Positions 16,297-62,030 of a stretch of 64,000 nucleotides of DNA are shown here, one piece after another. The stretch is taken from contig SWBL01000112.1 of the NCBI GenBank assembly GCA_024195585.1, positions 1 to 64,000 of the forward strand. Direction: 5' to 3'. Below the pieces are notes generated by a model, which saw only the letters and a program-made list of their open reading frames with translations, had not been told where the DNA came from and ran no database searches. Every line of letters starts with the position of its first letter. Within the stretch, counting starts at the first letter, position 1. Position numbers and translations under genes: made by a program. This DNA comes from Aureobasidium sp. EXF-3400. Its lineage: Eukaryota > Ascomycota > Dothideomycetes > Dothideales > Saccotheciaceae.

Positions 16297-18991
16297 ATGT
16301 CGCTGAAAGTGGCTCTCGTAGCATTGGCTGCAATCGCAAACTCAGTGCATGCTCAAGACAATACTAGAGCACCATGCTCACAGCTTAGTGCCCTCTCAAC
16401 AAACAATGCCACATTCTTCCCTGCCAACCTCGCACTTTCTTGTCTGCGCTCCGTACCACTAGCGAAAGAAGATGGTCTACTCCAACTCAAAGGCCTACGT
16501 ACATTCTCCGAGTTCCAGAGCGACCTGGAATACCTTGCGGATCCCACCACTGGCCGCATCTATCCTGGAGTTGATCTCTTAGCCGGCTTGGATAAGCTCA
16601 CTTCGATGCTGCAGGACGACATCTACGACAACGAATATGACTTTCAGTTGGATATCTTCAAGCTCTTCTCATCTGCTTACGATGGCCATCTTTCATATAC
16701 TCCTGATATTTTAGACGTGTTTGCTTTTGCCAGGTTACAGAACGAGGAACTGAACGATGAGGGGATACCTGCATACTTCTCGCTAATCTCAGTAAGTCAG
16801 GAGTAGATCTTCCCCGTACCCTAAAACGTGTAACTTCCCTACTGCGCCTGTGGCGACGAGCAAAAGATACACTTTAACAAGGCACGACTGTTCTTGGAAC
16901 TAGAGGCATGTCCATCGAGAGCCGATAAGTTGTAGCTTCTCAGTGGACATCGTCCTGTTTCCTTAATGTATTGTGCATCTTCACAGCTACACACGTTACA
17001 CCCTTTGAACATGGGGAGGATGTATTGTTTTGGACTTGCGAGTTTGAGCTAACCACTTGAACTCATAGGTCGTGACTGATGAGAACGACACTCCTGATAT
17101 CTATACATACAGCGATGAAGCTGCGCTGTCCGAATCCGGAAACGTCGACTATAGTCCTTCACCTGTCTCCAAGATCAACGGCGAGGATGTCTTTGCTTGG
17201 GTCAACAGCTATGCATCTCAGAATGGCAGATCTCAAGACCCCGATGCAAATTACAACGGCGTTTTCCTGAACATCCCTGCACTGGCATACCAGGATATCG
17301 AGACGAGTTACTTTGCTCTTTCAAGATTCTATCAAGGTGACAAAACCGTGCTTAACTTTGCTAATGGCTCTACTCTTGATATTATGACGAGAGCACAATT
17401 ACTGTCTGACAAGATTTTGGAGGGTCTCACCGATGGTGCGAGCTTCTTCGACAGATTCTGTAACAACAATCTCACCGAGTCGATTCTGGCACAGGCCAAT
17501 TCTTCGAGTACGGCACCTTCACTGACTGCCTCGAACGACACCCTGGTACCTTTTGAACCTGTATCCGCCGAGGGAATCACACCTCCACACCCAGCGTATC
17601 CAAGCCCGATCGTCATCGCGTCTGATAACAGTGTTGCTGGCTATCTCTCCGATACATACCTGGAGCTTGCTATCCTTGCTGTGCCTAGCTTCTCTTCTGT
17701 CGATGAAATTGAGTTTGAGAACGTTGTGCGTCAGTTGTTGGCGACCGCGAATGATGATGAACGAACAAAATTAGTCATTGATCTTCGTGGCAATAGTGGA
17801 GGCGACATTTTCTTGGCCTACGATCTCTTCCGCCAGCTCTTTCCAACTGAGATTCCATACGGTGCAGGCAACTACCGTGCCAGTGAACTCCATAACGTCA
17901 CAGGACGTGTTGCAAGCAGGAACATCGACCAGCTTCGTGCAGCTTATCCCGATTTAGTCAAGGCCGGTGTTGATGGGGTTGTTCTCAACAGTTTCAACTA
18001 CCGTGAGCCTTTGACCGTGGATAACAAACAGTTTACTTCTTGGGAAGACTTCTTTGGACCACACCAGAATGATAGAGGCAACTTTACCTCGCTCAATCGA
18101 TTCAACCTTACGGACATCTCTGCCACAACAGTGCCTATTCTAGGCTATGCAGATGACAATATAGCACAACCCCGAACCTTCTCACCTCAAGACATAGTGC
18201 TCCTGCACGACGGAACCTGTGCGTCCACTTGCGCAATCTTCAGCGAGTTCATGACATCTCAAATGGAGACATGGGGTGTCGTAGTCGGGGGCCGGCCCCA
18301 GAATGGACCCATGCAGGGTGTTGGTGGTGTCAAGGGCTCCCAAGTACAAGGCATGTTCATTCTCTCCACCATTATCAGCGCCGTCATCAGCGCCGCACCT
18401 CTCGGCGACCAATTCTCTTTCCTCTCCGGGTTCGGCACCGACTTGATATCCGCCACGCAACAAGCACTCAACCGTGCTTCGGCTGGTGGTCCTCTGCTCG
18501 TAAAAGCCAGTGTCAATTTCCGCAATAACATCAGGAAAGGAGATGAGAGTGAGACGCCCCTACAACATATTTACGAAGCAGCAGATTGTCGATTCTTTTA
18601 CACACCTGAGATGTATTCCGATCAAGCTGCTGTGTGGAACCAAGCGTACGATTCTACTTGGGGAAGTATGGAGTGTGTTGAAGGATCTACCGAGCATCCG
18701 TCATCCGTGACTGGAGGTGGAAATATCACCGCTGGACCACCGGAAATGGCCAAGAACTTCTTCGGAGGGAATGAGACTATTTTCTTGGGAGGAGAGTTGG
18801 GAACTGTGTGGAGGAATGGTAGTTCCAGAGATAGTGGTAGCTCTGGCTCTGGAAACGGCAACAATTCTGGTAATGGCACTACTGGTGGCAAGAACGATGA
18901 CGAGGACAACAAGAGTGAGGCTGGTATGCTGGCGAGACCCTTACTTCTGACTTTGTCATTGACATTGAGTGTCATCCTGCTGTCTTTGTAG
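16297..18991 (+). CDS. Secreted S41-family peptidase-like protein, probably GPI-anchored
   Basis: Exons 16297-16791 and 17069-18991 give 805 aa. The N-terminus MSLKVALVALAAIANSVHAQ is a signal peptide. The central region has the S41 (tail-specific protease/CPAF-like) fold signature: a beta-strand with LVIDLRGNSGGD, followed by LLHDGTCASTCAIFSEF, where the Ser of CAST is the expected nucleophile. The C-terminus has a Gly/Ser/Asn-rich linker and then a hydrophobic tail (ARPLLLTLSLTLSVILL), a typical GPI-anchor signal. Many Asn-X-Ser/Thr sites suggest a glycosylated cell-surface protein. The only intron is 277 nt and contains a decayed MITE. An element end starts 20 bp after the stop codon. Substrate unknown. 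Confidence 0.88.
16809..17019. mobile_element. Decayed MITE inside the S41 gene intron
   Basis: The left end reads CTTCCCCGTACCCTAAAAC and the right end CTTTGAACATGGGGAGG, degenerate forms of the family TIR. Interior segments such as ATTGTGCATCTTCACAGCTAC and the CAGTGGACAT block match the copy at 60602-60823. Both ends are bordered by AT. Removing the element leaves an intron of about 65 nt, the normal size here, so it probably landed in an existing intron. Confidence 0.8.
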
Positions 18992-19010
18992 GAGCAATAG
19001 CTACACACAT

Positions 19011-19030
19011 CCTCCCCGTGTGCTAAAGAC
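19011..19030. mobile_element. Solo MITE terminal repeat
   Basis: CCTCCCCGTGTGCTAAAGAC is a perfect family terminus, preceded by AT. No matching opposite end was found within 300 bp, so this is an end fragment or the remains of an internal deletion. It starts 20 bp after the S41 stop and lies within the 3' end of the convergent minus-strand frame. Confidence 0.75.
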
Positions 19031-19748
19031 GCATCCAAGCGGAACTCGAACCACTTGGTAGTTTGGTTCAGCTCTTCGCCTTGAATCCAATCGTCGAGGC
19101 ATTCTCTAGCTTCACTAGCCCCCTCGAAAACTCTAGTGGAATCAGCAAGCTTATAGAATTGCAAGGCCAATCTGTCTAGCTCTGTGTCTTCCCATGCAAG
19201 GAGATGGGCGCGAGATTCTTCCCGGGTCATATTTGCTGTAGTGTCGTAGTCGTACGAAAGGTGCTCGAAGGGGGCGATATAAGTGGCAAGTATACGGTCG
19301 AGAGGTGTTTCTCCACCCCACATGGTGCGGATCTGAGCCTCTTGTATAGGATTCACGTCGTCCTGAGCCCAGAAAGAAACAGTATTGTCGAGAGCAGTAC
19401 GGTCGTCGATGATGCCGAAAGGGGATGGCAACTGATCCGTTCCCTGATTGAGTTCGATGGTGACAAAGTTCTGGAGGTGATGTATCGAGGTGTTGAGAAA
19501 GCCAGACTCGAATGGCTGAACGGGAGGCATTGTTGGGACGGAGAAGTTCGGATGGGCACGCTGCTCGACCAGGACCCAGTCGTTTCCCCAATGCTCACCA
19601 GGAGAGAACTCTTCGTCCAGAGCGCTCTGCAAGACACGATTGATGACCTTGTACAAGCTGAGCAAGAGGTGGATTGATGAAGCTTCTTTCAGCTTACCTG
19701 GAGTGATACGTTGGCAGTAACAAAGAGTGGATTGAAAGAGTTCATCAT
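19016..19748 (-). CDS. Uncharacterised protein, 3' end merged with a MITE terminus
   Basis: Exon 1 (19748-19698, MMNSFNPLFVTANVSLQ) splices over a 50-nt intron to exon 2 starting at 19647 (VINRVLQSALDEEF). The frame then runs through about 200 good-looking residues, rich in acidic and aromatic positions (for example HWGNDWVLVEQRAHPNF). Near 19030 it enters the MITE terminus and stays open, antisense, into the S41 gene as far as 18622. The natural C-terminus therefore appears lost or replaced. I do not recognise the family, and no signal peptide or membrane segment is evident. Additional upstream exons cannot be excluded. Confidence 0.5.
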
Positions 19749-20261
19749 GTTGCATAGTCTATGGCAGGAGTGATTGGAGAAGAGGAGGTACTTGGCCTTA
19801 GATGAGTTTCATAATCTGTGCTCAGGAAGGCAGCCTGATGGGCGCGTATGGACGGCGGCTGCCTCAAGAAGCGCTTGGCTTCGAGTTTTTGACCAAAACA
19901 AGGCAGCAGACAGCTGGTAGCCCAAAAATCTCACTGCAGCATCTTGGATCACGACAGTCAGATTCAGGTCTTTGCTGCTTGCGAGAAAGAGAGATTCCTG
20001 AACGCGTCATGACAATGCCAAGATGACGCGGAACATCCTCGGTATGCGGGCGCTGGGGAAGACGGCCATCAGCCATGGCGGCCAGATGAATGTTGCGCTT
20101 GTGATAGAGACAACAACCAGTATTGCTTGCCCACCTTGACTATCTATACCGGACCGTCTGACATACACCGATCCCCGTCACCTGTCGGAGCCGACTCTTC
20201 TCGCATCATCGAGCCCAGACGACATCCAAGCACACGCACAAGACAAGCACAAGTCACAGCC
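19749..20261. other. Divergent spacer
   Basis: About 510 bp lies between the minus-strand unknown gene and mim1. Short open frames only. Likely promoter DNA for both genes. Confidence 0.45.
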
Positions 20262-23097: not shown

Positions 23098-23277
23098 CCT
23101 CCCCGTGTGCTAAAGACAGTCACAGTGTAGCTATCGAAATGCACAGTTCTACTTCGAATATAAGGCTAGCCATTGAGATAGCCTTTAACATGGTCTTGTC
23201 CGTAGAGACCACATTCTCCATGAAAGTATTGTGCGTTTCTATAGCTACAATGTGATTGTCTTTAGCACACGGGGAGG
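23098..23277. mobile_element. Intact MITE, short subfamily (180 bp)
   Basis: This is the best-preserved copy. Its terminal inverted repeats are about 50 bp, starting CCTCCCCGTGTGCTAAAGAC on the left, with the mirror image on the right and only a few mismatches. Both sides are bordered by AT. There is no coding capacity. It shares inner TIR sequence (GTCACAGTGTAGCTA) with the copy at 59230-59451. Confidence 0.9.
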
Positions 23278-24675: not shown

Positions 24676-26198
24676 CTTGTTGGTATTTGCCTTGTTGAAT
24701 GAGAAAAGTGCTGGCTCATCAAAGAGACAATTTGAAAGAGCATAAAAGACACACACTGGCTCACAAGGTTCAGGGTGTGCGTAGTTTATTTTTTCCAAAA
24801 ACAGTCTAATGCATGCCCTCTGACCGTTATAGTCACGCAGTATAATAAAAGGATGAGACATGCACATCAATGATTGCTTAGCAAGAATCCCGTTCAGGAC
24901 TGCTAGTTGATTGTCGTTGTTGAGAAAGGTTAGATTAGATGAGTGCTCGTGTCTATCGAACCGGTCTTGCTTCGAGCAAGCGTCTAGCAGGTCTATCAAT
25001 TTACGCACGTATATCGTCTCCAATAAAATTTGGCGATAACAATCAAGAGAAGATCAGCGAGCACGTCTATCCTCCCCATGTGCTAAAGTATGTAACGCAT
25101 GCAGCTATAACAATGCATAATACTATAGGGATTAGGATAGTGCCCATTGAGAGGCGGCGATTTATCGGCTCTCTGTAGCCACGCCTTCATTTCCGAACAC
25201 ATTCGTGCCTTTTTGTAGTATATACTTTGCTCTTTACTGTCGTGAGAGTACGAAGGAAGTCACAGACTTTGCACACAGGGAGGATACAGCCGAGTGAGCT
25301 TCCAATTGGTCGGAGATGTGGATAGATCCGGTCGCTGCTGGCGCACGGTGCCGAGAACGGCCCGTCTCATTGAGCTCCACTGCCTCTTTCGACAAATCTT
25401 ACCCCTCGAAACCCTCAAAACGTGTTTGCCCTCATTATCACGCATGTCAAGACCCTTCTGGTAATCGTTGAACTTGATCGACGACCCTTTACAGGTGATC
25501 GACAGACGCTCATGCAAACTTATGTAGGTGCTTCGCCAAATTGGAAGCTTATAGGCCCTTCGAGCCTATAATCGCTCCTGCCGCAGTGCTGCGAGTCCCT
25601 GACACGTGGTGCCATGACTGTCAAAATGTGACTTTGACGTTGACATGTCTTGATCCACCATCGAAGAAGTTGCATTCGGCCGAGTGAATCACGTACGGGT
25701 ATGCAGCTTCTGCATAGTCGCAACTTTCATGCCCACCACTTACGAGATAGCTCCATATCAGCGTTGAGGTTGCAGCATAGATACCATGCTGTGTCGTATT
25801 GGTTGCTGTCCACTTCCGACGGACGAATTGCGCAAGACCAGCTAGCATTGAGACAGCGCATTTTCGAGTCAGTATCTAATGGCAGTTGATCGATAGCAGG
25901 AATGACCTTGGTGGATCCATCACACCCACGAGACTCAACACGAACGGCCGTACTGGGAGGGGAAAGATCCCCGCTATGTTTCTCTGTGAGTCCCATGGCG
26001 AAGAGGTCGCTCCTCAGAAATCAGGTCTACCTTGCGGCGAGCTACCAACGATGAGGATTCGTCTACGGTTATGATAAAGTGCCGGTTCCCAGCACGCTGG
26101 AAGACTCCTGCTCAATTTCCAGCTACCCTCTTGCCCAAGCTTGACGATTAATACTTAAATCTTTTTCCCGGGATCTCATCAATTCTGCCAACACAAAC
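24676..26198. other. Divergent region between FSH hydrolase and PKS
   Basis: About 1.5 kb should hold both promoters. It contains the MITE at 25071-25283. No supported gene: the open frames here are short and motif-free. An AT-rich stretch (TTAATACTTAAATC) lies about 50 bp before the PKS start and could act as a TATA-like element. Confidence 0.5.
25071..25283. mobile_element. MITE, long subfamily (213 bp)
   Basis: The left end is CCTCCCCATGTGCTAAAGTA and the right end is GACTTTGCACACAGGGAGG, both bordered by AT. The interior closely matches the inverted copy at 55015-55227, including the blocks GTGCCCATTGAGAGGCGGCG and AGTACGAAGGAAGTCACAGA. No coding capacity. It sits in the shared FSH/PKS promoter region. 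Confidence 0.88.
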
Positions 26199-29100
26199 AT
26201 GGCATCCACTCTCACACCTGTTGCCATTGTGGGCTATGCCTGCAGACTCCCTGGCGACGTCTCCTCACCTGACGATCTTTGGGAGTTGTGCTCTCGAGGC
26301 CGTACTGGCTGGGGACCAACTCCCTCTACACGTTACGCCAAAGATGCGTACTACCATCCTGCTCCCGGCAAGCATGGATGTATCAATACAGAGGGTGGTT
26401 ACTTTCTCAAAGAAGATCCTGCTCTTTTTGATGCTCCTTTCTTCAATATGACCATTCAAGAGGCTACTGCACTCGACCCTCAGCAGCGACTTCTTCTCGA
26501 ATGTACCTTTGAAGCTTTCGAGGATTCTGGTATGACCAAAGAAGGGATCGCAGGTAAAGACATTGGTGTCTTTGTTGGTGGTTCCTTCGCGGACTATGAG
26601 GTCAACAACACTAGAGATATCGATACTGCACCTACATACCAAGCCACTGGATGTGCGCCAGCAATGCAGTCCAATCGACTGTCATACTACTTTGACCTTC
26701 GAGGTCCAAGTATGACTGTCGATACGGCATGCTCGTCTTCCCTCGTGGCACTTCATAGCGCCATGCAAAGTATTCGCAGTGGTGAATCTTCATCAGCAGT
26801 TGTTGCTGCTGCGCATCTCAACCTGACACCAGACTTCTTTGTAACTATGTCGAACACACAGTAAGTCGTTGGCACCAGAGCTTTGGTCCAGACTAACGAT
26901 TTACAGGTTACTCAACGATGCTGGCAAGACTTTTGCTTTCGACCACCGGGCAATCTCAGGATTTGCACGTGGCGAAGGAGCAGGCTCGCTGATCTTGAAG
27001 CCGCTCGAAGCAGCCATTCGTGATGGCGATGTTATTCGTGCCGTTATTCATAACTCTGGTGTCAACCAAGATGGCAAGACCAACGGTATTACAGTACCGA
27101 ATGGTCGTGCGCAGTCAGACTTGATCAAACAAGTCTATCTCAAGGCAGGACTTGATCCAGCTGAATGTGGTTTCAGTGAGTGCCACGGAACTGGTACAAA
27201 AGTCGGCGACCCCATCGAAGTTGCCGGCATTCACGAAGCGTTGGGTGCTGGTCGTAGTCCCAGGAATCCGCTTTTCGTCGGCTCCGTAAAGAGCAACGTC
27301 GGCCATCTCGAAGGTGCCAGTGGTATAGTTTCGGTCATCAAAGCCGCGATGATGCTGGAGAAGGGTATGATCCTGCCTAATGCGAACTTCGAGACGGCAA
27401 ACCCAAACATTCCGCTCGACCAATACAATATGAAGGTATTTTGGTTGTCCAATAATCAACATGGTACCGTGTCGCTGACGATCACAGGTTCCAACCTCAA
27501 CTAGGCCCTGGCCGCGAGGCAAAAAATACGTCTCGGTTTCTAATTATGGCTTCGGTGGTGCCAATGCTCATGTCGTCTTGGGTGCTGCTCCCAAAGGACT
27601 CAAGACTACGATGACCACCATCCGCTCGCTCGACGAAGCACCTGAAGAGCCTGTTTGCAAGCTGTTTGTGCTTTCCGCCCATGACTCCCAAGCTCTGCAA
27701 AAGAAGATCACTGATCTTGGTGTTTTCCTTGAGCAACGTCCAGAAGTCTTCGAGAAGTTACTTGCAGGCAATGTAGCTTACACCCTTGGCGAAAGGCGCT
27801 CTCACTTGCCTTGCAGACTTGCAATTGCGGCAGCCTCCTCTGACGAGCTAGGTCAGAGTCTTGCAACCACAAAAGTCCCTACTTTCCGAGCTCGCAACGA
27901 ACCCACGCTCGGCTTTGTCTTTACCGGTCAAGGAGCTCAGTGGGCCGCCATGGGAGCCGAGCTTGCTCGTGACTACCCAATATTTGCTGCTGCACTGAAC
28001 ACTGCAGACGACACATTGAAGGTCCTCGGAGCTGACTTCTCTCTGAAAGAAGAGATGCTGAAACCTGCAGATACATCACTTATCAATGCTGCTCATATAA
28101 GTCAGCCTGCTTGTACCGCACTTCAGATCGCTCTCACTATGCTCCTGAGCTCATGGGGTATCCACCCTGCTGCTGTGGTCGGCCACTCGTCCGGGGAAAT
28201 CGGCTGTGCCTTCGCTGCTGGTATCATTGGTCTCGAAGACGCGATGAAGATCGCTTATTACAGAGGCCAGTGTATGCTTAGTCTCAAGAAGAAAGCTGTT
28301 GGCAAGCCACAAGGCACCATGATGGCTGTTGGTACCAGTGCCGAGAACGTTCGCCCTCTGCTCGATGCTGTGACCAAGGGTTATGTCACTGTGGCTTGCA
28401 TCAACAGTCCTGCCTCAGTGACGCTATCTGGAGACGTCGAGGCTGTTGAAGAACTCCAGCCAATCTTGACAGAGAAGAGCATCTTCAACAGACAGCTGAA
28501 GGTCGGAGTTGCTTATCACTCCGCACATCTCGAGCCTGTTGCAGATGAGTACTTGAATCTGATCAAGGACATTCAACCTGCTCGCACAGCCACAGCGACG
28601 TTCTACTCGTCTCTCCTTGGACGTGTCGCTGAAGCTTCTGAGCTTACCCCTCAATACTGGGTTCAGAACTTGACCTCCCCAGTCAGATTCTCTGATGCTC
28701 TCAGTGCAATGGCGAAAGAAACTGGATCCAAAAGTATCGACCATTTGGTCGAGCTTGGACCTCATTCAGCTCTGCAAGGTCCCATTAGAGATACTCTGGC
28801 TACCATAGATGCTGCAAAGGGCAAGATGCAGTATGTCTCTGTGCTTGCTAGAGGTCAAAATGCCAGTGAATGTGCTCTACGCATGGCAGGTGCTCTCTAC
28901 ATGAAGGGATTGCCACTGACGTTTGGCGAGATCAACTTCCCTCGTACTAAGAGCGTCAACCAGAAGCTTATCACCGACCTTCCAAGATATCCATTCAACC
29001 ACGAGACCAGATACTGGCACGAATCTCGACTTGCTCAGAAGCATTGTTTCAAAGAGGGCGGCCGCAACGATCTTCTAGGTTCGCTTGCTGATTGGTCCAA

Positions 29101-32100
29101 CGATCTTGAACCTACTTGGAGAAACATCGTTAAACTGGATGATTTGCCATTCCTTCGCAGTCACAGGATGCAGGATATGCCTGTTTTCCCCATGGCAGGG
29201 TACATGGGCATGGCTCTCGAAGCAGCTGCTAGACGTGCAAATGCTCGTGGCGTCCAATTCGATCGCTTTGAAATACGCGAGTTTGTCGTCAGTAGCGCAT
29301 TGGTCCTCAATGAGGACACTGATGTTGAGATGACTATCACTTTGAAGCCCTACAGTGAAGGCCTCCGCGGTGCAGCATCTGATCTGTGGGATGACTTCAA
29401 GATCTGCTCCTGGGATGCAAAGCGTGGCTGGCTACAGCATTGCCACGGTCTCATTGGTGTTCGAAACTCTCCTGCTGCCAACGCCGTTGATGCACACAAG
29501 GCTCAGAGTGCTTCCAAAGTATTCGAGGCTCTCAAGTCAAGCATCATCAGTGCATCCACCGATACTGTTGACGTTCAAGCTATGTACGAAACTCTCACTG
29601 CCATCGGAGCTGGATATGGGCCTGTGTTCACCGGTCTGGATCCTTGTCATGCAAGTAATACTACTGCTCATGCTGAGCTCATTGTTCCTGACACCAAGTC
29701 TCTGATGCCTAAAGGCTACGAGACTGAGTTGATTGTACATCCCGCTCTCCTTGACCAAATCATTCAGATTGTTTGGCCTATATTCGGTGCGGGTCGTCAG
29801 GGACTCGACACACTCTACATGCCCACATTCGTGAAGAACTTCAGCATCTCTCGCAACTTCTCTTCTATGCTGGGAAACCAACTCAAGGTGTTTGGCTCGG
29901 GTAATCCCAACAAAGAGGCCCCCGAGCCCACGAAGTTCGGTTTCTTCGTTGTGGGTTCTTCCAACGCTAGCGAGCCTCTTGTCCAGTTCGACGGTCTGAC
30001 GATGACTCCTCTTCGTGAATCTAGTGGGAGTTCTGGACCTCAAGCACGTGAGCTCTGTTATAAGATCGACTGGCAAACAGTTTCGGACGAAGACAATGGC
30101 CTGGAAAAGTCCTCGTCTGACGTGTCAGACACTGCGATCAAAGCTGATTCACTTGTCAGCACGCCTTTCACAAGAGATGAAGCTGTTTGCGTTGTCTACA
30201 GTGAAGCATATGAGAAGAATCTGGCAGTCGAAGTGGCTGACAACGTCTGGAAAACATCTGGTGTCCAAGCCGAGCTGCTCACGCTCTCAGAGGTACCTGC
30301 TGATAAGCGAGTCATCTTCTTGTCGACTGGCAAGAACGTTTTGAGCGACATCGATGCAACGGAATTCGGTTTCTTGCGCCAGATGCTGCTCTCTGCTCGT
30401 AAGGTTCTCTGGGTTTATAAAGAAGGCCCTGATGCTGCTGATGTCGACGGAAGCATGGTCGTTGGCTTTACCCGTGCGATTCGCTCCGAAACTTCTGCCA
30501 ACATCGTCACTCTTGGTCTGCAGCAGGCCACCGACAAGAATATAGTTGAGAACATCTTCACTGTTCTCACTAAGACCAGTGCTGACTCGACCTCTGCTTA
30601 CAAGGACGACAAAGAATTCGTTCTCAAGGGCGATGACCTGTTGGTGCCTAGGGTGCTTGATGACGAGGAGTTGAACGTACGACTCCACCAAGAGTCGCAA
30701 GATTCGGTCGTGTACCAGCAGCCTTTTACACAGTCCGATCGTCGCCTCAAGATGGTGATTGCCACTCTTGGTTCTTTGGACTCGTTCTACTTTGTTGACG
30801 ATGAGCCCAAGCCACTGGGTGACAACGAGGTTGAGATTGAAGTCAAGGCCACTGGCATGAACTTCAAGGATGTTGTAGTTTCCATGGGCCAGCTCAACCA
30901 GCCATATATCGGTGTTGAGTGCGCTGGTGTCATTGCTGCAATTGGCAAGAACGTGACTGATGTCAAGGTCGGACAATCTGTCATGGCTATGACGGAAGGT
31001 GCATACAGCACTTACGCTCGCTGTTTGTCAACCAGCGTTGCCCCGCTTCCCGAGAAGATGGATTTCATCGCTGCTTCGACCATTCCTGTCGTCTTCTGTA
31101 CCGCCTACTATGGTTTGTTTGATCTTGGTCGCCTTACCGAAGGTGAGAGTGTGCTCATCCATGCCGCTGCTGGTGGTGTGGGACAGGCAGCAATCATGTT
31201 GGCACAGACTTGTGGTGCCGAAATCTTTGCCACTGTTGGAAGCCTCGATAAGAAGCAGCATATTATGAAGGAGTATGGGATCCCTGAAGATCACATCTTC
31301 TACAGTCGTGACACTACCTTCGGACCGGCCATCCGTCAAGTCACTGGCGGGAAGGGTGTCGATATTGTTCTCAACTCTCTCGGAGGTGACTTCCTGCGTG
31401 AGAGTTGGGACTGCTTAGCTCCGTTCGGACGCTTCATTGAGATCGGAAAGGCAGACATCACGAAGAACAGCAGACTTGAGATGGCTCAATTTGAGTACAA
31501 CGTGTCTTTCGCCTCTGTCGATTTGACCAAAGTAGCTGCATACCGACCAAAACTCATGAAGAGACTCTTGAACGATGTGGAGAGGCTCATGAGCAACGGA
31601 AGTATCAGACCGGTCGGTCCAATCACCAGCTATGGTATCAATGATGTCGAAGCTGCCTTCCGCAGTCTTCAAAGCGGTAAGAGCATGGGCAAATTGGTCA
31701 TCGCTCCTCAGCCTGATGACCTCGTCCAAGCGATTGCGCCCAAGAAGACTGCAAACTTGTTCAGAGGAGATGCCTCATATTTGATTGTTGGAGGTACTGG
31801 TGGTCTTGGTTGCAGCATTGCCAGATGGATGGCATCTCGCGGTGCAAAGCATATTTGCTTGTCATCTAGACGAGCCAACATCACGCCAAGACTGGAGGCA
31901 CTTATCAACGATCTTACTAAATTGGGAACGAAAGTATCTGTTCGTGCCTGCGATGTCGCCAACGCCGATTCAGTCGAGACTCTCATCGAAGGCCTCAAAG
32001 AAGAGGCCCCAATTCGCGGTGTCATTCAAGGTGCCATGGTGCTCAAAGATATCCTCTACGAACAAATGACTCTGGATGACTTTAGTGCAGTCGTTAACCC

Positions 32101-32863
32101 CAAGGTTGCCGGTACTCTCAACCTGCACAATAGTCTTGGCAGATCCGAGCTCGACTTCTTCATCGCTCTTTCCTCAGTCGCTGGTGTTGTTGGTAACCGT
32201 GGTCAAGCGGCCTACGCAGCTGCCAACGTCTTCCTGGATACCTTCATGGCCCACCGCAATGCCCAAGGACTTCCTGGTACATCTCTCGATCTCACCGCTG
32301 TCTCGGACGTTGGCTATCTGGCCGATAACAGTGAAAGAGCAGCTGACGTTCTCCGCAATCTGGGAGGTGAGACCATCGAAGAAAGTGAAATCCTCGGTCT
32401 CCTCACCGCTGCCGTCACAGGCAAGATCACCGCAAGCAACAACCATGTCATTACTGGTTTGAAGATCAACCCTGGCTCGGAGCCCTTCTGGTGTCACGAT
32501 GCGAAGTTTAGCCACCTGCTTGCTGCAGCTGCCTCGCAGAGCTCTTCAGAGGGTGGAAATGCTAACGTACCTTTGCCTCAGGCTTTGAAGAGTACTGCTG
32601 ATGGCGAGAAGGCATTGGAAATCCTGTATAGTGCTCTTGTCACCAAGCTAGCCGCGGTCCTGATGTTGTCTGTTGAGGAAATGGAGCCATCTGCCGCAGT
32701 CGCTTCGTACAGTTTGGACTCTCTCGCTGCTATCGAGGTCCGCAACTGGATTGCAAGAGAGGCTGATGCGAACGTCCAAGTTTTGGAGTTGCTCACCAGT
32801 CCCAGTCTGATGGAGCTGGCCAGGTTGATTCTGAAGAAGAGCAAATTGGTTTCGTTTGAGTAA
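26199..32863 (+). CDS. Highly reducing type I polyketide synthase (KS-AT-DH-ER-KR-ACP)
   Basis: Exons 26199-26860, 26907-27435 and 27488-32863 give 2188 aa. The ketosynthase has the Cys motif VDTACSSS (Cys178) and the His motifs ECHGTGT and SNVGHLEG. The acyltransferase has GHSSGE (Ser631). The dehydratase has His956 in HRMQDMPVFP, where the usual HxxxGxxxxP Gly is Asp. The enoylreductase (about 1490-1805) has HAAAGGVGQAA. The ketoreductase (about 1825-2055) has VGGTGGLG and the SSVAGVVGNRGQAAYAAAN catalytic region. The ACP has SLDSLAAIE (Ser2142). The DH-ER linker is too short for a C-methyltransferase, and no thioesterase or reductase release domain follows. The expected product is an unmethylated, highly reduced acyl chain released by a separate enzyme. 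The FSH hydrolase, dehydrogenase, Dabb protein and regulator nearby fit a cluster. Confidence 0.96.
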
Positions 32864-32999
32864 TTTTACGTGGCATGATAGTTATTTCCTTTGGTTTGTT
32901 CGGGTTCGGGTTCGGCACATTCCTCTCAAACATATATCATTGTCATTGTAATAATGAGTTATATCGCTTCACTTTCTTAGACTTGCGTGAACATCCCCT

Positions 33000-34124
33000 C
33001 TAATGTGACACAACTATGTCTGGTGCACCGACTCGCCTTGCCTCAGCATTCAATGCTTCTATCTCGGCTGCCACATATGGTATGCCTGACTTCCTCCTTT
33101 CTGCTTCAGTCAACTGTTCGATTTCACCCGGGAAGTAAATCCGATCGACTCCTGCCATCTTCTCGCAGTTCACGACCTGATTCATGTCAGCGACATCAAC
33201 GTTTGCCTTACTAGATGGCAAACTTACCCTACCATAAAGATACTCCATTCTCTGTTTGAAGTCATTCGAGCTGAGGAAGAGGTCAGGCTTTAGGGCAATG
33301 AGGAAGTGACCCACGTCAGCTGGCTTGGAAGGATCATATGGATTGGTGACATGTCCAGCGAACGCGGATCCTGACAAGACACCCGAGAACACGTCCATCA
33401 TGATTGATAATGCCGAGCCCTTAGGGCCACCCATAGGTAGCATGACACCCTCGAGCGCAGCACTCGGATCATCAGTCCTGTTTCCGTCCCTGTCCAACGC
33501 CCAGTCGACTGGTATCTTCTCGCCTCTCCGTTTGGCTTTGTAGATCTTGCCTCTCGCTGCGACCGATGGCGCCATATCCAAGATAAAGTCATGCTCAGAG
33601 CCAGGAGCACCACAGGCAATCGGCGACACTCCCATGAGCTTCTCTTTGCCGCCCCAGACAGGCAGCGCAGGTGACGAGTTGGTGAAAACCAAACTCATCA
33701 TCCCGGCATCGAGAGCTTGTTGCACCAACCAAGCACTCATACCGAAATGATTGCTGTGTTTCACACTAACCATGCCGATTCCATAAATCTTGGCCATATC
33801 AACAGCTCTCTCCATACCCAACCTGGCAGCTACGAAGCCAAATGCGTTCTTGCCGTCGACTTGAGCGACTACAGGAGTTTGGTTGACGATGGTGGGTTGA
33901 GCAGTGGGATCGAGGACTCCTTGGCGGATACGCGCGAGGTAGGATGGGATGCGATTGACGCCATGGGTGTCCACGCCACGGAGGTCGGCAGCAACGAGAC
34001 AATGAGCTATAGTCGTTGCATCTTGCTCAGACACACCGTTTGCCTGCAGGACAGCTTTGACGTAGGCATTCGCATTCTCGTGAGAAACCAAAGTTTTGGT
34101 GGTAGTTGTTTGTGATTCGGTCAT
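33000..34124 (-). CDS. Malate/L-lactate dehydrogenase, Ldh2-type NAD(P)-dependent oxidoreductase
   Basis: Exons 34124-33228 and 33176-33000 (51-nt intron that is itself open in frame) give 357 aa. The Ldh2/YbiC fold is shown by GVDTHGVNRIP, SNHFGMSAW, and the late GVDRIYFPGE. Members reduce 2-oxo acids or imines with NAD(P)H, for example ureidoglycolate, malate or piperideine-carboxylate enzymes. It converges on the PKS gene with only 136 bp between stop codons, and lies between the PKS and its likely regulator. A role as a tailoring reductase is an inference from position; a primary-metabolic role is equally possible. Confidence 0.9.
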   Translation of the reverse strand: MTESQTTTTKTLVSHENANAYVKAVLQANGVSEQDATTIAHCLVAADLRGVDTHGVNRIPSYLARIRQGVLDPTAQPTIVNQTPVVAQVDGKNAFGFVAARLGMERAVDMAKIYGIGMVSVKHSNHFGMSAWLVQQALDAGMMSLVFTNSSPALPVWGGKEKLMGVSPIACGAPGSEHDFILDMAPSVAARGKIYKAKRRGEKIPVDWALDRDGNRTDDPSAALEGVMLPMGGPKGSALSIMMDVFSGVLSGSAFAGHVTNPYDPSKPADVGHFLIALKPDLFLSSNDFKQRMEYLYGRVSLPSSKANVDVADMNQVVNCEKMAGVDRIYFPGEIEQLTEAERRKSGIPYVAAEIEALNAEARRVGAPDIVVSH

Positions 34125-34401
34125 TTTGATTGATGCTTCTGAAAGTGGCTGATGCTAGAGAAGAGCCCAACAATTTCTTTGGGTTGATGGTCTGTGACCT
34201 GGGAGATTTGTGACAGAGATTCAAGACTAAAACCCTAGAGATGTGGTCGAGATGTTGTTTTTAAGGAAGTCGCGATCCTTGCACGGTCGCGATTCCCCAT
34301 TGTTCGATCAGTGCGGATTTTCCGTCTGGCGGAAGGCACCAGGCTCAACGTCTTGGCGGTTAGCATTTCGGGATCTGATCACACAATTTATTCCGTTTGT
34401 T

Positions 34402-36789
34402 CTAAAACGACATGGGGGCCAATCCGTCAAACAAATCCTGCAGGAATGTATCGGTGTTCATGTCTCCTGTCCAAAAACCTGTGTTTGGGTCTGACATTTG
34501 GTCAAAAGCTGATGGCAGGAAGTCAAGCCCGGGGGTCCAGTTTCGACTGTACTGTTGCATTAACACATCAAGCTCATCGGCGTGTGGTTGTCCTGTTGTA
34601 ACACCATTTTCTGACTGATTGTTCAGAGAATCTTCGTTGTAGTTCCTGGAATCTGGATTGAGAGGGTCACCATGGGCTGGTGCCGTACTTGGATTCGAAT
34701 GTCCAGAAGTGCCACGGCTCTTGCGGTCCATCATCCAGCTGATAGTCCTGTGCGACAACTCATCCAGAATATCGCGACTTCGCTTCGCCCCAGGCCAATG
34801 CTCGCCTGTAGCACTAAGAATATTGGAAGCTGCGCGCAGATCAGAGACGAGCTCCTCGATCATAGCGTCTTGTGCAACTGATGGACAAGTCCAGATACAG
34901 AAAAATGCTGTGACTGAACTCATCATAACTGAATGATAGGACGCCCAACTGAAGACCAGCGAGTTTTCGATGTATAACTCATGGTAGAGTCTGATGGCTG
35001 TTATAGCACTTTTGTAACATGCCACCAAATCTTCTGAGCTTGGCTGAGGTATACCAGGACTGGGTCGTAGAAGAAGGGTCTTCAACACGTGATAGCGGAT
35101 ATCACAGAGCTTTGTCACGTAGTCTTTGGGACCTGCCGTTTGTGGTATGGCAGCAGCCCATTGGTCCAGGCGATTGGACATATCTCTTTGCCAGGTCTTT
35201 ATGCAGCGCACAGCTGGGTAAGCATAGGCTGGTGTTTCTCGTGAAATGCTATGAAGAATGTACTTCATCTCAGAGTTGAGTCTGGCAAGCTTGAATAGGT
35301 GTATAGCATAACTCATGTGAGTAGGTGGTTCTTCGGCTGTCCTAGATCTAACAGTCGTTTGCGCCAGAGCCGTGTCTTCGATATCTGCAGGAAGCTGGAA
35401 AACAGTAAGCTGATAAATCTACTGCAACTACTCCATGTTGTAAGATTTTTACCCTCAGATCACACGCTTCATCCCTCAGGCCAATCGGTCGACCCATCAT
35501 TGTACAAAGAGATCTGTCCAAGCTGTATACGACCCAAAATAGCCTCGTCCGCATTTCCTGATCGCATCGCGAGATGGACAATGCAGATGTCACATCTCTC
35601 TGCAGGCCGAGGTCTACAACCATTGCGATACATTGGTAGTTGAGATACCAAACGTTCAATTTCGTTGCAGGGCTGTGCATGCCCCAGACATGTAGTAGTA
35701 AGAGGCACTGCAGCCCTCTGGTCGAACTCTCAAGTGGAGCCTTCTCGAAGCATGACATAGCCATCGCAGCCCAACCTTCGCTGGGCAGCACAACTCTGTC
35801 TCGGCGTGAGAGCATGATTGATGAGATCGCAAGCACCATATAGACTTGAAAAGCGACAACTGGGTCTGGCTCACTGGATGTGAACATTTCTTCTATCAAC
35901 CGCATATGTGTTGGCTCATGTAAGAACGGCAGATGTTGATGAACAGTTCTGAAGTATGTCTGAGTCAGCTCCTGTGTTAGGTCTTTGCTTGATGGAAGCG
36001 GTGTTTGAATATCGCGGAGGAGCTTCTCAGTAAGAGCACTATCTCGCTGTAAGGCGGCGTTGCCTCGATTGAGGCGAGTTGGGTTTGCGGTCTTGGTCAA
36101 TGCACTAGCTGTGCATACAAGCTGAGTGAAGAAGTGGCCACTGGATGGTCCAATATAGCGCGGGTTCTCTCCGTTAGGGAGCGATACGAGGCCAATTTGG
36201 TGAGCCATATTTGAGTCTGCGTGTTGCGGATTGCTGATTGGAGCTTGAGTGTCATTTACTGTTGTATCCATATTGTTCATCGATGTATCACAAGCGATAT
36301 TTGAAACATCTGCCTCCGTTGTGGGCTCGTGGTAATCATCTGGTGCAAAAGCTGGTGCGGCATCGGGCATCGAGCCCGAGACATAATCTGCATCCCTAGT
36401 GCTTCCTATGTTCGTATCCTGGGTTAGATCCACATCAGGACATCTTTCTTTGACGATATCCTCGAGCCAACGGACTCGGTGTTCAAGATGCTGTGTATAT
36501 CGCCTATACCACCGCTCAGCTATGTGAGCATATGCAGAGAACTTGACCTACGCTCGTGCTTGACTATCAACAACGCTCCCACCTTGATACTCGCATTCTT
36601 TGTTTGATTTACTGCATGAAGTACAAGTTGGCAATATTCCGTCGCACTTGAAACTGGTCAGCACAATGACGGAGCAGACGCAAGCGGTATTGTCTTTACA
36701 CGTATTTTACGCTGTTGGCAGCGCAGACAAGCTGTACGGATGCGCTGCGACCTTCGTGATTGCCGTCTTGCAGCTCTGTCATCAGTCAT
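34402..36789 (-). CDS. Zn2Cys6 fungal transcription factor, candidate cluster regulator
   Basis: Exons 36789-36700, 36646-36552, 36503-35453 and 35394-34402 give 742 aa. The binuclear zinc cluster is complete: Cys21, 24, 31, 38, 41 and 48 (CX2CX6CX6CX2CX6C). It is followed by a linker and a coiled-coil dimerisation segment (HLEHRVRWLEDIVKERC). The middle homology region typical of Fungal_trans proteins follows (YFRTVHQHLPFLHEP, then RTRLFWVVYSLDRSL and GRPIGL). The acidic, Asn/Asp-rich C-terminus could be an activation region. Introns are 53, 48 and 58 nt. The first intron splits the zinc cluster just before the CDG motif. The gene is in the PKS neighbourhood and faces away from the PKS. Confidence 0.93.
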
Positions 36790-51810: not shown

Positions 51811-52429
51811 GTAGCCAGCAGGCGAGTTTAGCAATGATATCATGACAGGATCAGGTGTTCAAGGGGTTTGTAGTTGCACATGGGTAGGGAATATTAGCAT
51901 AACAGAAGGGCCACAGTGGTGGAATCAGAGATTGGATTCGTATCCTATCACTACTACATCATCGATCCAGCAATGCTATCAGTTCAGGATTGAGCTTTTC
52001 ATATGAATAATCGTGCACCTTCATTGAACTTGACAGGAAGCTCAAAGCAAAGGCTTGCGGGAACATGAAGTCGGATGGCAACATCTTTCCCATGCGCTAA
52101 ATCGTCATAGTAATAGCTGTTAACATGCAGAATGTTAACCTCACTGAAGGTGTGGCTAGTGAAACAGTGTATCTACTGAATTTAACCAAAGCATCTTGCC
52201 TGAAAGTCCTATGTGCAATACGTCTGATGATTTAAATCAAGTAGGAAATTCGTGCAGAGGATTGTTTGTTCATTCCGCATCTTCCAAGCTAGCGTTTGCG
52301 AGGGGCGTCGTCCGGAGAGAGTGCGGTGTTCTGCCGGTCGAGCAACAACATCGCTGAGGAAAACTCTGATGACAACAAACACAACCACCACAATTTCTTG
52401 AGATCAGATAACAGTCCATCAACACAGTC
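51811..52429. other. Intergenic spacer with a possible decayed MITE end
   Basis: About 620 bp. At 52082-52130 the sequence CATCTTTCCCATGCGCTAAA followed by ATAGCTGTTAACATGCA resembles a degenerate family terminus plus its subterminal GTAGCTATCGAAATGCA. No convincing opposite end was found. Confidence 0.35.
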
Positions 52430-55517: not shown

Positions 55518-55610
55518 CCCTCTCCATGCTAATATGTAACGCGCGTAGCTATACTATTGCACAATGCTACGGATTGAAGAAAGGACATCGCCTATCGCAA
55601 GGTGATAACT
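55518..55610. mobile_element. Decayed MITE fragment
   Basis: CTCCATGCTAATATGTAACG and the following CGCGTAGCTATAC plus GCACAATGCTACGGATT resemble the left half of the long-subfamily element. The right half is not clearly recognisable beyond about 55610, although scattered similarity may continue. Confidence 0.6.
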
Positions 55611-56307
55611 TGAGGGCTTTCTTTGGCTGTCTCTGCTTTCATAAGCAGTTGTGCAGTTTTGCACTCTATACTTGAGCCTACGCCATCGCTGGAGGGCGTC
55701 ACAGTGTCCTGAAGTCCGCGGCTCACAAGACACGCTGTCAAGTCGGCAAAAATGTCATGTCGACGGCTTGCAGCTCTTAGAACGGTGATGCGTGAGCGAA
55801 AGAAACGCAATCCGGTGCAGGATTATTAGGATCGACCACATATGAAAATCCGTAACCCTCGAAGGGCATGCTTGCCGAAAGGATCGTTGACCACATGCTC
55901 CCTCGACACTCGGATATGGCCCATCCCGCTGAGAACGACGAAGTCAAGGGATAATGGTTGGTGTTGGGACGCAGGACAGGAGGCATCGGTTCAGCGGTCC
56001 GTCTGTGCCAAACGCAAGGCCCCAGTCTGTTGGGTCACGGCCGTAGAGCTGAGGGTTCTGGCACGAGAAGCCAAATGGTCCAGAAAACTCCCTGTGATGA
56101 TCACAAAGCACTTGAGATCGAGATTCGTGTAGGATCCGAACATGGAAAGCTCGAGAAACGTATACTCAATAGTGGATGTAGAAGCGTGCTCGATCATGAA
56201 ACGCCGTGGTATTAGTAGTCCAAACCCCTTGTGCGTGCGCGCACGGCCCCAAACTCCGATGATCCTCAAGACCCAAGAAACAGACTACAAGGAAAGTCGG
56301 GTTTGAA

Positions 56308-58121: not shown

Positions 58122-59149
58122 ATGCCCTGGCGAAACTCGGACGCATACGGCTCGCAGCCATATGCCGCCTTTACTGATCCGAATGGCTTTAATTTTACCT
58201 TCGATGTGGGCTCAGACAACTTCATGAGCCCATATGCATTCCCTCATATGTCGCCTGATTCCGCATGTTAGTATACCCCCCTCGCTCCAAGCTTCACAGT
58301 ATCGTCACCATGGACCTTCTGCTATCATCCCCAAGTACCCCACGATACTCATACAGTCTTCCAGGGACACCAACCTCGCAGCAGTTCGCAACCTCGAATC
58401 AGTCAGATTCGTTGTCTCCGCTAGAAATCAACAACTTCACCTCTCCGACCCAGGATCAGGATCTGCAATATGCGCCATCCACAAATGCTTCTGTTCATTC
58501 TGATGGAAGCTCAATTCCTGCCTTCTCCATCCGTCATTCTTACCCAGATCAACAGAAGCCTTCGGCACAAATGATCGATTCCAGTAACTTGTCTCATGGC
58601 CAAAAACGCAGCTCTTCGTTCCTGGACTTTGAAGCACCTCAAGTTCCTGCCGAACCTGTTGGTGATCAACCTACCTCTTCAACATCATCTCCAGCTGTGC
58701 CTATCAAATCACGACAGAGCTCTAGTGCCGGTAGCCCCGAGGAAGCCTCTCAGCCCTCCGATGCTGCCGCTGCTCGCGTTCGCACAACAGACTCTGCAAA
58801 AGTACGACACAACATCGTAGAGCGACGATATCGTGAGAACATCAACGCACAAGTTGATGTATTACGCGATAGTATCGTCGCTACTGTTCACTCGAAAGAG
58901 GAGCAGCAAGGCGGATCGGCGTCTCGTCTAGGAGCTGATGAGCTCAAACGCCTCACCAAAGCCGCCGTCATCGCAGCGGCCACGAAACAAATCAGGCGTG
59001 CAAGGACTGAGAATGAGCGTCTGCTCGATGAACATCGCGCTCTGCAGGCCCAAATTCGAGAACTTGAGAGTCTGGTCAAGTGTGGAGATTGTCCGCTCAT
59101 GAAGCTGACGGTCGACCTCAGTCTGGAAAGCCCGACCCAGCCACCTTGA
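58122..59149 (+). CDS. bHLH transcription factor, SREBP-like (2)
   Basis: ATG 58122 opens a frame (MPWRNSDAYGSQPYAAF) that stops at about 58271. The main frame runs 58265-59149 (294 codons). The join is uncertain: donor-like GTTAGT at 58270 with the acceptor near 58366 keeps frame (about 98 nt) but skips a coding-looking stretch (SSPSTPRYSYSLPGTP). The only nearer acceptor would give a 33-nt intron. A start at 58265 or 58311 is also possible. The bHLH is RHNIVERRYRENINAQVDVL, again with the SREBP-type Tyr, followed by helix 2 (LKRLTKAAVIAAATKQI), a leucine zipper-like coiled coil and KCGDCPLMKL. The CxxC near the end parallels the other copy's CEGC, suggesting the two are related. Confidence 0.82.
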
Positions 59150-59229
59150 GCTGTACCGTGTGCGGCAGTGTCGCAGGCCAGGCTTCTGCTTTCCTCACCC
59201 AAATGCTACTTTGCGCCTGTACGCCATGT

Positions 59230-59451
59230 CCTGCTTGTACGCTGGAGACTGTCACAGTGTAGCTACAGAAATGCACAATAATTCCGGAAAGAATGTGGTC
59301 TCCACAGAGAGAGCCCCGACGAGGGTTTGCTCCATGGCCAAACTCATATTCAAAACACAACTGTGCATCTCTGTAGCTTACTATACCCTTGTGGCCCGTA
59401 CGGGGAAGAGGCCAATTGCGACATTGTGACAGTCTTTGACACAAGGGGAGG
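59230..59451. mobile_element. Decayed MITE, short subfamily with insertion
   Basis: The left end (CCTGCTTGTACGCTGGAGAC) is a mutated terminus that runs into the well-kept TGTCACAGTGTAGCTA block. The right end is GACAGTCTTTGACACAAGGG. A stretch of about 35 bp interrupts the right arm relative to the 23098-23277 copy. Confidence 0.75.
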
Positions 59452-60601
59452 GTGTAGTGCGATAATCGTTCAGGCAACTCGAAGGTCAAGCACTCTCGAG
59501 ATTGGATGGAATTGATACAGTGTTGGTCATATCGTCGATCGACGGTCTGGGCCAAAGTACACATCAGAGCCTTCACGTTGGTTAGCAGATCTCATCGCGA
59601 GCGAGTGGCTGCGTACCAGTGTTGGTCTCCAAGTGCTTATGAGCTCGGGCAGGTTTGACAACGAGGATGATAACGCGTAATGACAAAGTTGAGACAGACA
59701 CTTGGCGTATCTCTGCTCTTTATGTGTAGACAAAGTGAAGGCTTATGGGCAAATATAGAGCCATCGACTATGCTTGGATAGAACAAAAGTCGAATTTCAT
59801 TTTGAACGGGCACACTCATTCATATATGCGTCAAGGAAGCAGAAGCAACCGCCAGGCTCTCGACCACCTCTCTGCACAGTGCCATCTCCCTCTCTAGGAG
59901 ATGCAAACACACGTGCCCCTGCCACCCCCAGATGACGTCCGTCATCACCTGTCATCACCCCATTTCGTGAGATCTATCATTTGGTTCCGCCAACCACAAT
60001 GCAGAACTAAAGACTATTGACCTCTATCCTCGTTTTCCCCAGATTGTTATCAAAGATACTGAGGTACACACGTGGTTTCTGTCTCATTAAATCTGCAACT
60101 CACCGCTGTTGGACATTTGACAGGCAGCCACCGACGACAAGGCCTTCTGATCGCCGTTGGTAGCAATTCCCTCCATGGTATGATGCTTCAGGCCTCCATG
60201 ATTGAAGCCTTGGGGTCTGTAGCCTGATATCACCTGAGTTGCGTTCTGGACTCGGCAGATAGCATCGATTGGGGTCTTGATGCAGAGCATGCAAATAGTC
60301 ACCGATTCATCAAGTAGCGATAGGGTGCGGTGTGTTTTCCGAGACTAGATTATCCGAAGCGAACGGGGTGTGCGAGTTTGGGTGAGGATGCCCAGCATAT
60401 ATATAATGCCCGCGTTTCCTTGAGATCGTACGATATCTATGAAGCACGCAACATCCCTGTTCACCAAAGACTGTTGCGATACCACCACTGACATATGCCT
60501 GAGTTATGCCTACGTTCTTGATGAGATTGATGTGAGAAAGTCACATCGAAGGACCCGTGATTCTGTTCCAACACAGAAGTGTGGCCATAGGAATACCACA
60601 A

Positions 60602-60823
60602 CCCCCCGTGTGCCAAAGTCTGTAACTCCCCATTGGATCCATCGACCTCCGACTACGCAGAGAGCAGAGTATGCGCTATAAAAAGGCACAGTCTCCTTTG
60701 GAAACATAGGTATGTCCACAGAGAGTCTATGATTCGTTGCTTCTTAGTGGACACTATTCTGTTCGTATCAATATTGTGCATTTTTACAACTACACGCGTT
60801 ACAAACTTTAGCACACGGGGAGG
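60602..60823. mobile_element. MITE, long subfamily, inverted (about 222 bp)
   Basis: The left end is CCCCCCGTGTGCCAAAGTCT and the right end CTTTAGCACACGGGGAGG. Interior blocks (TTAGTGGACA, ATTGTGCATTTTTACAACTA, ACACGCGTTACAAAC) align with the other long copies and with the intron copy in the S41 gene. No coding capacity. Confidence 0.83.
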
Positions 60824-61829
60824 GAGGATATGCTCTCTCTGTCGTTGGCAATCTGCATTTGAAAGCATTGCATATGTACACGGTAGTAACATGATTGCCC
60901 CTTGGCATTGGCAAGGGAGCATCAAGTTCAACTATCATCCTTGCACACTTATCGGTGATTAAATTGAGTTCAGGCTGTATTAAATCTCAGTTGACTGTTT
61001 GACGTCTTGACCGCAAGATCCATAGACCCAAGCGCAGCAGCTCGTGCATGTATCTCTCACTCAGAACCGAAGGTATTGTGCCTGTCGAGCCGGCGACCAT
61101 GTATTTTCACCGGTACTTGACCGGTTCATCACCGCATATCTTGATCATGTGAAGCCTGTCGACTTCTGGAATGGGAGCACAATGCTGTTGTGCTTGTCAG
61201 AATCTTATCCGATAGGCCTTACCCGCACGTCTTCCATACTGTCGGTAACTTCCATTCGCGAGTCTCGAAAATAGAGTGTACCTACCAACGAGGTGTTTGT
61301 CCCAACAACCAACTCGACATATGGACTTGTGTTCCGTATCTCGTGGCAATGCCGAGAAGGCTAATGTGGTCGTGACCTGCTCCTTCTTGCTATGCAGAGA
61401 TGACAGGGCCACACCCGGTCGAATGTCCGACTAGAGGCGGTCATACTATCTAGCCAGGCGGTCTCGATTTTAGGAATGGTCGAGCGAGGCGTTCTTGGTT
61501 CCGAGGATTCCAGAGTATGGGAACAAACGAGAGGTGACAAAGAACGACCGGTTGTAGTTTGAAATCGAGTAGCACAGTGTTAGAATGGCACACCACGAGG
61601 CTAGCGACTGTCTTTGCTGTGCTCAAGACGCGTGGTTCCGCTTGTGAACTCGCACTGTCTGAGACCTCGCCGTTGTCCGTGATGGTACCATAACATTCTT
61701 TGTTCTGCTAATTATGGCTTTACGCTTGTGGAAATTGCCGCCCTTGCTTGTTCTATATCGGTGGGCATCGCAAAAGGTTCAGAAGTCTGGGCAGTTAGGT
61801 ACCATCTTGGTACAGCCATCAGTCAACGT

Positions 61830-62030
61830 TTGTTTTGCTACCTTCCCTTGTACTAATGACCGCATAATAGTAGGAACAAGATGGTGTTCACTGAGAGGCA
61901 ACAAGCTGCTGACTCTCTGTGGACAGGCTTCTGCTTCCCAAAACAATGGTGCCTTTTCATAGTCAGCATTTTTTGCCCTTAGCTATAGTCGGAGTACGGT
62001 GGAAGTTACAGACTTTAGTACACGGGGAGG
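61830..62030. mobile_element. MITE, long subfamily, left end lost
   Basis: The right end GACTTTAGTACACGGGGAGG is clear. Upstream, ACTGAGAGGCAACAAGCTGC, GACTCTCTGTGGACAGGC and AATGGTGCCTTTTC match the 25071-25283 element in order. The left terminus cannot be recognised, so the start is approximate. Confidence 0.65.

What the first reader, a model, noticed from the sequence alone, without database searches (positions are those of the whole stretch)
16809..62030. A dispersed MITE family with TIR CCTCCCCGTGTGCTAAAG
At least nine copies or fragments occur (16809, 19011, 23098, 25071, 55015, 55518, 59230, 60602, 61830), with a possible tenth end at 52082. Two size classes exist: 180 bp with an inner GTCACAGTGTAGCTA arm, and about 213-222 bp with a TGTAACGCATG arm. 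None has coding capacity. Several copies are bordered by AT on both sides; because AT is self-complementary, it could be a 2-bp target duplication or the outermost TIR bases. They cluster in gene-poor and cluster-flanking DNA.
Basis: seen in the sequence. Interest (0 to 1): 0.75.

Follow-up and report, generated by a model that had tools for sequence, protein, structure and literature searches.

The report
Small jumping-DNA family in black yeast
Short pieces of mobile DNA, too small to code for anything, are scattered through a black-yeast genome and appear to have inserted by copying any two bases at their target; the enzyme that moved them was not found.

Summary
In detail: eight MITE copies or fragments plus one 20-bp solo end lie between 16809 and 62030. 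The possible tenth end at 52082 stays undecided (best E 0.069). The assembly (53.4 Mb) best matches Aureobasidium melanogenum. The terminal inverted repeat (TIR) has 366 ends genome-wide at up to 2 mismatches, against 1 for a reversed control; pooled hit lists give 192 merged loci. The AT question is answered: the border is a 2-bp target duplication, but of any sequence. It matches in 30 of 48 paired copies (shuffle mean 4.0, maximum 14 of 10,000), with 15 of 16 dinucleotides. New: the target is palindromic, TNY-NN-RNA (96 half-sites). Of nine window sites, five could be compared with a second copy of the locus in the same genome: four lack the element; at the fifth, 60602, the second copy holds a decayed MITE. 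Six transposase-family searches found none near a listed TIR end. Its termini and duplication fit none of the transposon groups compared. Verdict: a real MITE family, apparently undescribed, superfamily unassigned. The solo end lies on a rearrangement junction.

The parts
16809..17019 (.). MITE copy, 211 bp, TGTAACGC-arm type, target duplication AT/AT, inside an intron (16792-17068) of an S41-peptidase-like gene; intron is 64 bp without element and one duplication
   Evidence: absent from the second copy on C44
19011..19030 (+). Solo outer 20 bp of one TIR, at a rearrangement junction
   Evidence: exact TIR match
23098..23277 (.). MITE copy, 180 bp, symmetric type with two GTCACAGTGTAGCTA arms, target duplication AT/AT
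   Evidence: hairpin z -15.5
25071..25283 (.). MITE copy, 213 bp, TGTAACGC-arm type, target duplication AT/AT
   Evidence: absent from the second copy on C15
55022..55227 (.). MITE copy with eroded left end, TGTAACGC-arm type
   Evidence: E 2.7e-50
55519..55708 (.). MITE fragment, right end lost, TGTAACGC-arm type
   Evidence: E 4e-16
59230..59451 (.). MITE copy, 222 bp, GTCACAGTGTAGCTA-arm type, diverged left TIR, target duplication GT/GT
   Evidence: absent from the second copy on C44
60601..60823 (.). MITE copy, 223 bp, TGTAACGC-arm type, borders CA/GA (no matching duplication)
   Evidence: a decayed MITE lies in the corresponding interval of C44
61841..62030 (.). MITE copy, 190 bp, borders TA/CA (no matching duplication)
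   Evidence: absent from the second copy on C44

Best explanation
A family of non-autonomous cut-and-paste DNA transposons (MITEs) in an Aureobasidium genome. Shown: shared inverted termini CCTCCCCGTGTGC..GCACACGGGGAGG; a 2-bp duplication of arbitrary sequence at the insertion point; a palindromic target preference TNY-NN-RNA centred on it; several sites without the element in a second copy of the locus; no coding capacity. Inferred: a transposase supplied in trans bound the termini, cut the element out and joined it to target strands cut with a 2-bp stagger; gap repair made the duplication. Its source is lost, too diverged, or was missed by the searches. The superfamily is unassigned.
For: 366 TIR ends against 1 in the control; 192 merged loci; 2-bp borders identical in 20 of 31 strict pairs (1.9 expected) and 30 of 48 relaxed pairs (shuffle mean 4.0, maximum 14 of 10,000); no 3-bp match in the strict set; half-site preference T at -5 (53 of 96) and C or T at -3 (79 of 96), chi-square 48.8 and 46.8, the same in copies with and without matching borders; no two of 48 sites share flanks; second-copy locus lacks the element at 16809, 25071, 59230 and 61841; no ATG frame over 57 aa in window copies.
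Against: 18 of 48 pairs have no matching border, read here as decay. No autonomous element or transposase was tied to these TIRs. At 60602 the second copy is not empty but holds a decayed MITE. Base-level junctions align only at 61841 and, as a whole intron, at 16809; the second copy is 70-85% identical, so this is not a strain-level comparison.
Confidence: 0.9

Rival explanations
1. Introner-type elements: MITE-like DNA that carries its own splice sites and makes new introns.
For: One window copy (16809) lies in an intron.
Against: Its splice sites lie outside the element and leave a 64-bp intron without it; the second copy has an intron there without the element. The other window copies were not seen in introns, but intron placement genome-wide was not tested.
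Confidence: 0.04
2. The copies belong to a known superfamily with a 2-bp or similar duplication (Plavaka or another CACTA relative, or an ISL2EU relative) and only the termini have drifted.
For: Plavaka elements of fungi make 2-3 bp duplications (PMC12730594, passages); two degenerate DDE_Tnp_4 genes exist in the genome.
Against: Termini CCTCC differ from TGT, CATCA, CAC and GG; ISL2EU duplicates AT only; no Plavaka or Transposase_21 match in the genome, though neither family rang in any control genome; no TIR pair around the DDE_Tnp_4 genes.
Confidence: 0.4
3. A structured non-coding RNA gene family or a foldback repeat spread by segmental duplication, not by transposition.
For: The 180-bp copy folds into a near-complete hairpin (z -15.5).
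Against: No Rfam match in 15000-64000; no two insertion sites share flanks; target duplications and a target consensus mark insertion; the 213-bp copy folds weakly (z -1.7, DNA parameters).
Confidence: 0.02

Closest known systems
Tc1/mariner/pogo-type MITEs of ascomycetes, such as Fusarium mimp (mimp recalled; TA rule from PMC10045372, passages)
   Same: About 200-bp TIR elements without coding capacity and with a 2-bp duplication.
   Different: Their duplication is TA in general; here TA is 2 of 30.
MITE families of Mycosphaerella graminicola (PMC4522978, passages)
   Same: Dothideomycete MITEs; nine of thirteen families with 2-bp duplications; some families share TIRs but not interiors.
   Different: There the duplication is TA (8 families) or CT (1); here any dinucleotide. 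TIR sequences were not compared.
Plavaka and EnSpm transposons of fungi (PMC12730594, passages)
   Same: 2-3 bp duplications (Plavaka).
   Different: Termini TGT..ACA, CATCA..TGATG or CAC..GTG; here CCTCC..GGAGG.
ISL2EU transposons (PMC4482050, passages)
   Same: 2-bp duplication with a palindromic target (A|AT|T).
   Different: AT only and TIRs starting GG; here any dinucleotide, target TNY-NN-RNA, TIRs starting CC.

Membership tests
MITE (non-autonomous TIR transposon) | Short, TIRs, no coding capacity | tested here: met
MITE (non-autonomous TIR transposon) | Dispersed, many copies | tested here: met
   366 ends, 192 merged loci
MITE (non-autonomous TIR transposon) | Target site duplication of fixed length | tested here: met
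   2 bp, 30 of 48
MITE (non-autonomous TIR transposon) | Autonomous partner with the same TIRs | tested here: inconclusive
   six family searches, none near a listed TIR end; most ends not read inward
Tc1/mariner/pogo (ITm) | TA duplication | tested here: not met
   TA 2 of 30
ISL2EU | AT duplication and TIR starting GG | tested here: not met
   AT 5 of 30; TIR starts CC
Plavaka | 2-3 bp duplication | tested here: met
Plavaka | Termini TGT..ACA or CATCA..TGATG | tested here: not met
   termini CCTCC..GGAGG
EnSpm/CACTA | CAC..GTG termini and 3-bp duplication | tested here: not met
piggyBac | 4-bp duplication (termini CC..GG shared) | tested here: not met
   duplication is 2 bp
Introner | Splice sites supplied by the element | tested here: not met
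   only for the copy at 16809: splice sites lie outside it; other copies not tested

The most novel reading that the evidence does not exclude
The family was moved by a transposase of an unrecognised fungal lineage, defined by CCTCC..GGAGG termini, a 2-bp stagger of any sequence and a palindromic TNY-NN-RNA target; and its copies have served as breakpoints of chromosome rearrangement that differ between strains of the species.
Probability: 0.18. Interest if true: 0.6.

Novelty: new member of a known kind. Interest (0 to 1): 0.38.

Why it matters
It gives the black yeast Aureobasidium melanogenum, reported as clonal and rich in diploid hybrids (PMC8401163 and PMC9535773, passages), a marker family of at least 192 loci with a known insertion signature. 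The main texts of these two papers hold no word beginning 'transpos', and that of PMC4227064 holds neither 'transposable' nor 'MITE'. The non-specific 2-bp duplication with a palindromic target is a concrete key for finding the missing transposase, and the solo end at 19011 makes a link between MITEs and rearrangement testable in strains.

Tried and rejected
Autonomous element: PF02992 0, PF13359 2, PF18759 0, PF05699 22, PF03184 12 and PF10551 0 matches in the own genome. Of the 36 matches, 3 lie on contigs with a listed TIR place (C11, C75, C77), each more than 60 kb from it. For PF02992 and PF18759 no control genome rang either, so their silence is weak. Around the PF13359 gene on C386 a 4-mismatch TIR look-alike had no partner and was dropped.

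Contig ends: TIRs 125-134 bp from the ends of C235, C527, C552 and C627 looked like the edges of a long element; they are ordinary MITE halves at which the assembly stops.

The 1195- and 1493-bp TIR pairs were not pursued: each shares its right-hand end with a complete copy of about 220 bp. Two overlapping pairs in L043 compete for one end; the better one was kept.

A Helitron-like reading of A|TC..GA|T was dropped once flanks proved to be many dinucleotides. Repeat-induced point mutation: no strong CpA bias (C-to-T 0.088 per CA site against 0.068-0.118 at the others in class A; 0.132 against 0.077-0.131 in class C). At the L028 insertion a 726-nt frame runs across the joined flanks, but neither side has a Pfam match. 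Literature searches showed no description of this family in their listings; the letters cctccccgtgtg are in none of the held papers. Names outside the held library (Repbase, supplements) were not searched.

Mended after a check: the profile still held three window copies under locus names, so I rebuilt it without them; and I had counted the 60602 site as empty, but one search shows a decayed MITE (E 3.5e-11) in the corresponding interval of C44.
Full report
Observation. The TIR CCTCCCCGTGTGCTAAAG occurs nine times in the window at up to 3 mismatches; shuffles give 0.04 on average. Profiles built without any copy from the window's contig find eight elements or fragments, and the solo end at 19011-19030 is an exact TIR match. 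The doubtful tenth end near 52082 stays undecided (E 0.069, 0.22, 0.78 with three profiles).

Where it is. The window is C112:1-64000 of a 53.4-Mb, 717-contig assembly. A DEAD-box helicase in the window is 98% identical to an Aureobasidium melanogenum protein. Haploid A. melanogenum genomes are about 26 Mb and diploid ones about 51 Mb, and diploids are reported as highly heterozygous hybrids (PMC8401163, passages), so this assembly may hold two subgenomes. Consistently, the window stretches that I searched have another copy on C44 or C15 at 70-85% DNA identity. That is low for one species, so I call it only the second copy.

How many. The genome has 366 TIR ends at up to 2 mismatches (179 + 187), against 1 for the reversed pattern. 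Pooling the places listed with those of the window gives 192 merged loci on 119 contigs. This is a lower bound, because each search lists only its best hits. Loci are clustered: 41 pairs within 10 kb against at most 6.9 expected, and 20 against 6.2 with the window removed. The window has 9 loci against 0.23 expected per 64 kb, but it was also searched hardest.

Anatomy. I aligned 43 paired copies and used 48 (up to 5 mismatches per end, at most 7 in all; the window copies at 16809 and 59230 fall outside this limit). A crude sorting by arm gives 5 symmetric copies with two GTCACAGTGTAGCTA arms, 25 with one such arm, and 18 with a TGTAACGC arm. The consensus arms of the two larger groups agree over the outer 13 bases. 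The 180-bp copy folds on itself almost end to end (z -15.5, RNA parameters), the 213-bp copy much less (z -1.7, DNA parameters). Median divergence from the consensus is 8.6% (23 copies, range 3.6-43.6%) and 14.6% (17 copies, range 11.2-27.2%), so the copies sampled are not recent.

Target duplication. In 31 strict pairs the two bases outside the left end equal the two outside the right end in 20, with 1.9 expected; in the 48 relaxed pairs, 30, against a shuffle mean of 4.0 and a maximum of 14 in 10,000. In the strict set no 3-bp match occurs; there is one 4-bp match (AGAG, L002) and one locus (L036) with an 11-bp repeat in another register. The dinucleotides are AT 5, AA 5, AG 3, GA, GC, TC, GT and TA 2 each, and seven others once. 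So AT is neither a fixed target nor part of the TIR; three window copies happen to have AT, and the one at 59230 has GT.

Target site. Reading both flanks outward gives 96 half-sites. Position -5 is T in 53 (about 25 expected; chi-square 48.8), -3 is C in 47 and T in 32 (chi-square 46.8), -4 is poor in T (11); from -8 to -14 chi-square is at most 6.3. The insertion site is therefore a palindrome, T N Y (NN) R N A, around the duplicated pair. The full pattern occurs at 10 of 48 sites and at 74 of 4128 flank positions (1.8%). The 18 copies without a matching border show the same preference, so they look like decayed insertions. No two of the 48 sites share flanks.

Empty sites. Five of the nine window sites are bracketed by matches to the second copy. 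Extra DNA in the window is 225 bp at 16809, 246 at 25071, 228 at 59230, 200 at 60602 and 175 at 61841 (from the coordinates), near the element sizes of 211, 213, 222, 223 and 190. Four of the five second-copy stretches show no MITE; the one for 60602 does, a decayed copy at E 3.5e-11, so that site is not empty, and the copies there may be old or separate insertions. The junction aligns closely at 61841, and the intron as a whole at 16809; elsewhere the flanks are too diverged. At 23098 the second copy lacks about 1.2 kb, so that site says nothing; 19011, 55022 and 55519 were not assessable. The copy at 16809 lies in an intron, 16792-17068, that is 64 bp without it.

The missing transposase. 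Six transposase families gave 36 matches, none near a listed TIR place. Absence is not established.

Comparison with what is known. From passages seen, ITm elements duplicate TA and piggyBac makes 4 bp with CC..GG termini; ISL2EU duplicates AT within A|AT|T, with TIRs starting GG; Plavaka makes 2-3 bp with TGT or CATCA termini, and the EnSpm families described there 3 bp with CAC termini. This family shares duplication length with Plavaka and ISL2EU but not the termini. It works like a cut-and-paste MITE and passes the MITE tests made here; its superfamily is open. M. graminicola, another Dothideomycete, has nine MITE families with 2-bp duplications, eight TA and one CT. The literature searches listed under Tried and rejected showed no description of this family.

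Junction at 19011. Left of the solo end lies the 3' end of the S41-like gene, whose second copy is on C44; right of it, matches go to C15. The minus-strand gene entering from the right agrees with Aureobasidium relatives (98% over 66% of the frame for P0121, a cluster of 13 sequences) up to RLDAS and then runs into the TIR, while the five relatives aligned (of eight found) go on with CAMGH and their own tails. Window 18914-19030, holding the last 78 bp of the S41-like frame, 19 bp more and the TIR, is also on C194 at 97% identity, there followed by more of a MITE. A rearrangement with one end inside a MITE is the plain reading; that the MITE caused it is inference. At the other switch from C15 to C44 matches, between about 42.3 and 42.7 kb, the profiles found no MITE, which speaks against a MITE at both ends. 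Misassembly was not excluded.

Verdict. A real, ordinary kind of element, apparently not described before, with an informative insertion signature and no known engine.

Noticed in passing
18900-19755: Rearrangement junction exactly at the solo TIR end: an Aureobasidium-only gene is cut off after RLDAS and joined to the TIR and the S41-like gene's 3' end; matches to the second copy switch there from C44 to C15.
   Followed up: partly
18914-19030 and C194:54649-54765 (L024): A 117-bp stretch holding the S41-like gene's 3' end and the TIR is 97% identical on C194, next to a fuller MITE.
   Followed up: partly
26199-36433: Polyketide synthase (KS to ACP domains, highly reducing type) with a malate/L-lactate dehydrogenase and a fungal transcription factor beside it, in the block whose second copy is on C15.
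   Followed up: no
starts of C235, C527, C552 and end of C627: Four contigs stop in the middle of a MITE, 125-134 bp inside the TIR.
   Followed up: partly
C359, C572, C621, C562, C472 and other contigs: hAT (22) and pogo/Fot-type DDE_1 (12) transposase matches, some in long open frames, mostly on high-numbered contigs.
   Followed up: no
L036:1295-1518: One MITE copy is flanked by an 11-bp direct repeat, GTCGAAAGCCA, instead of a 2-bp border.
   Followed up: no
C44:133159-133319 (L086): A decayed TGTAACGC-type MITE in the interval that corresponds to the window copy at 60601.
   Followed up: partly
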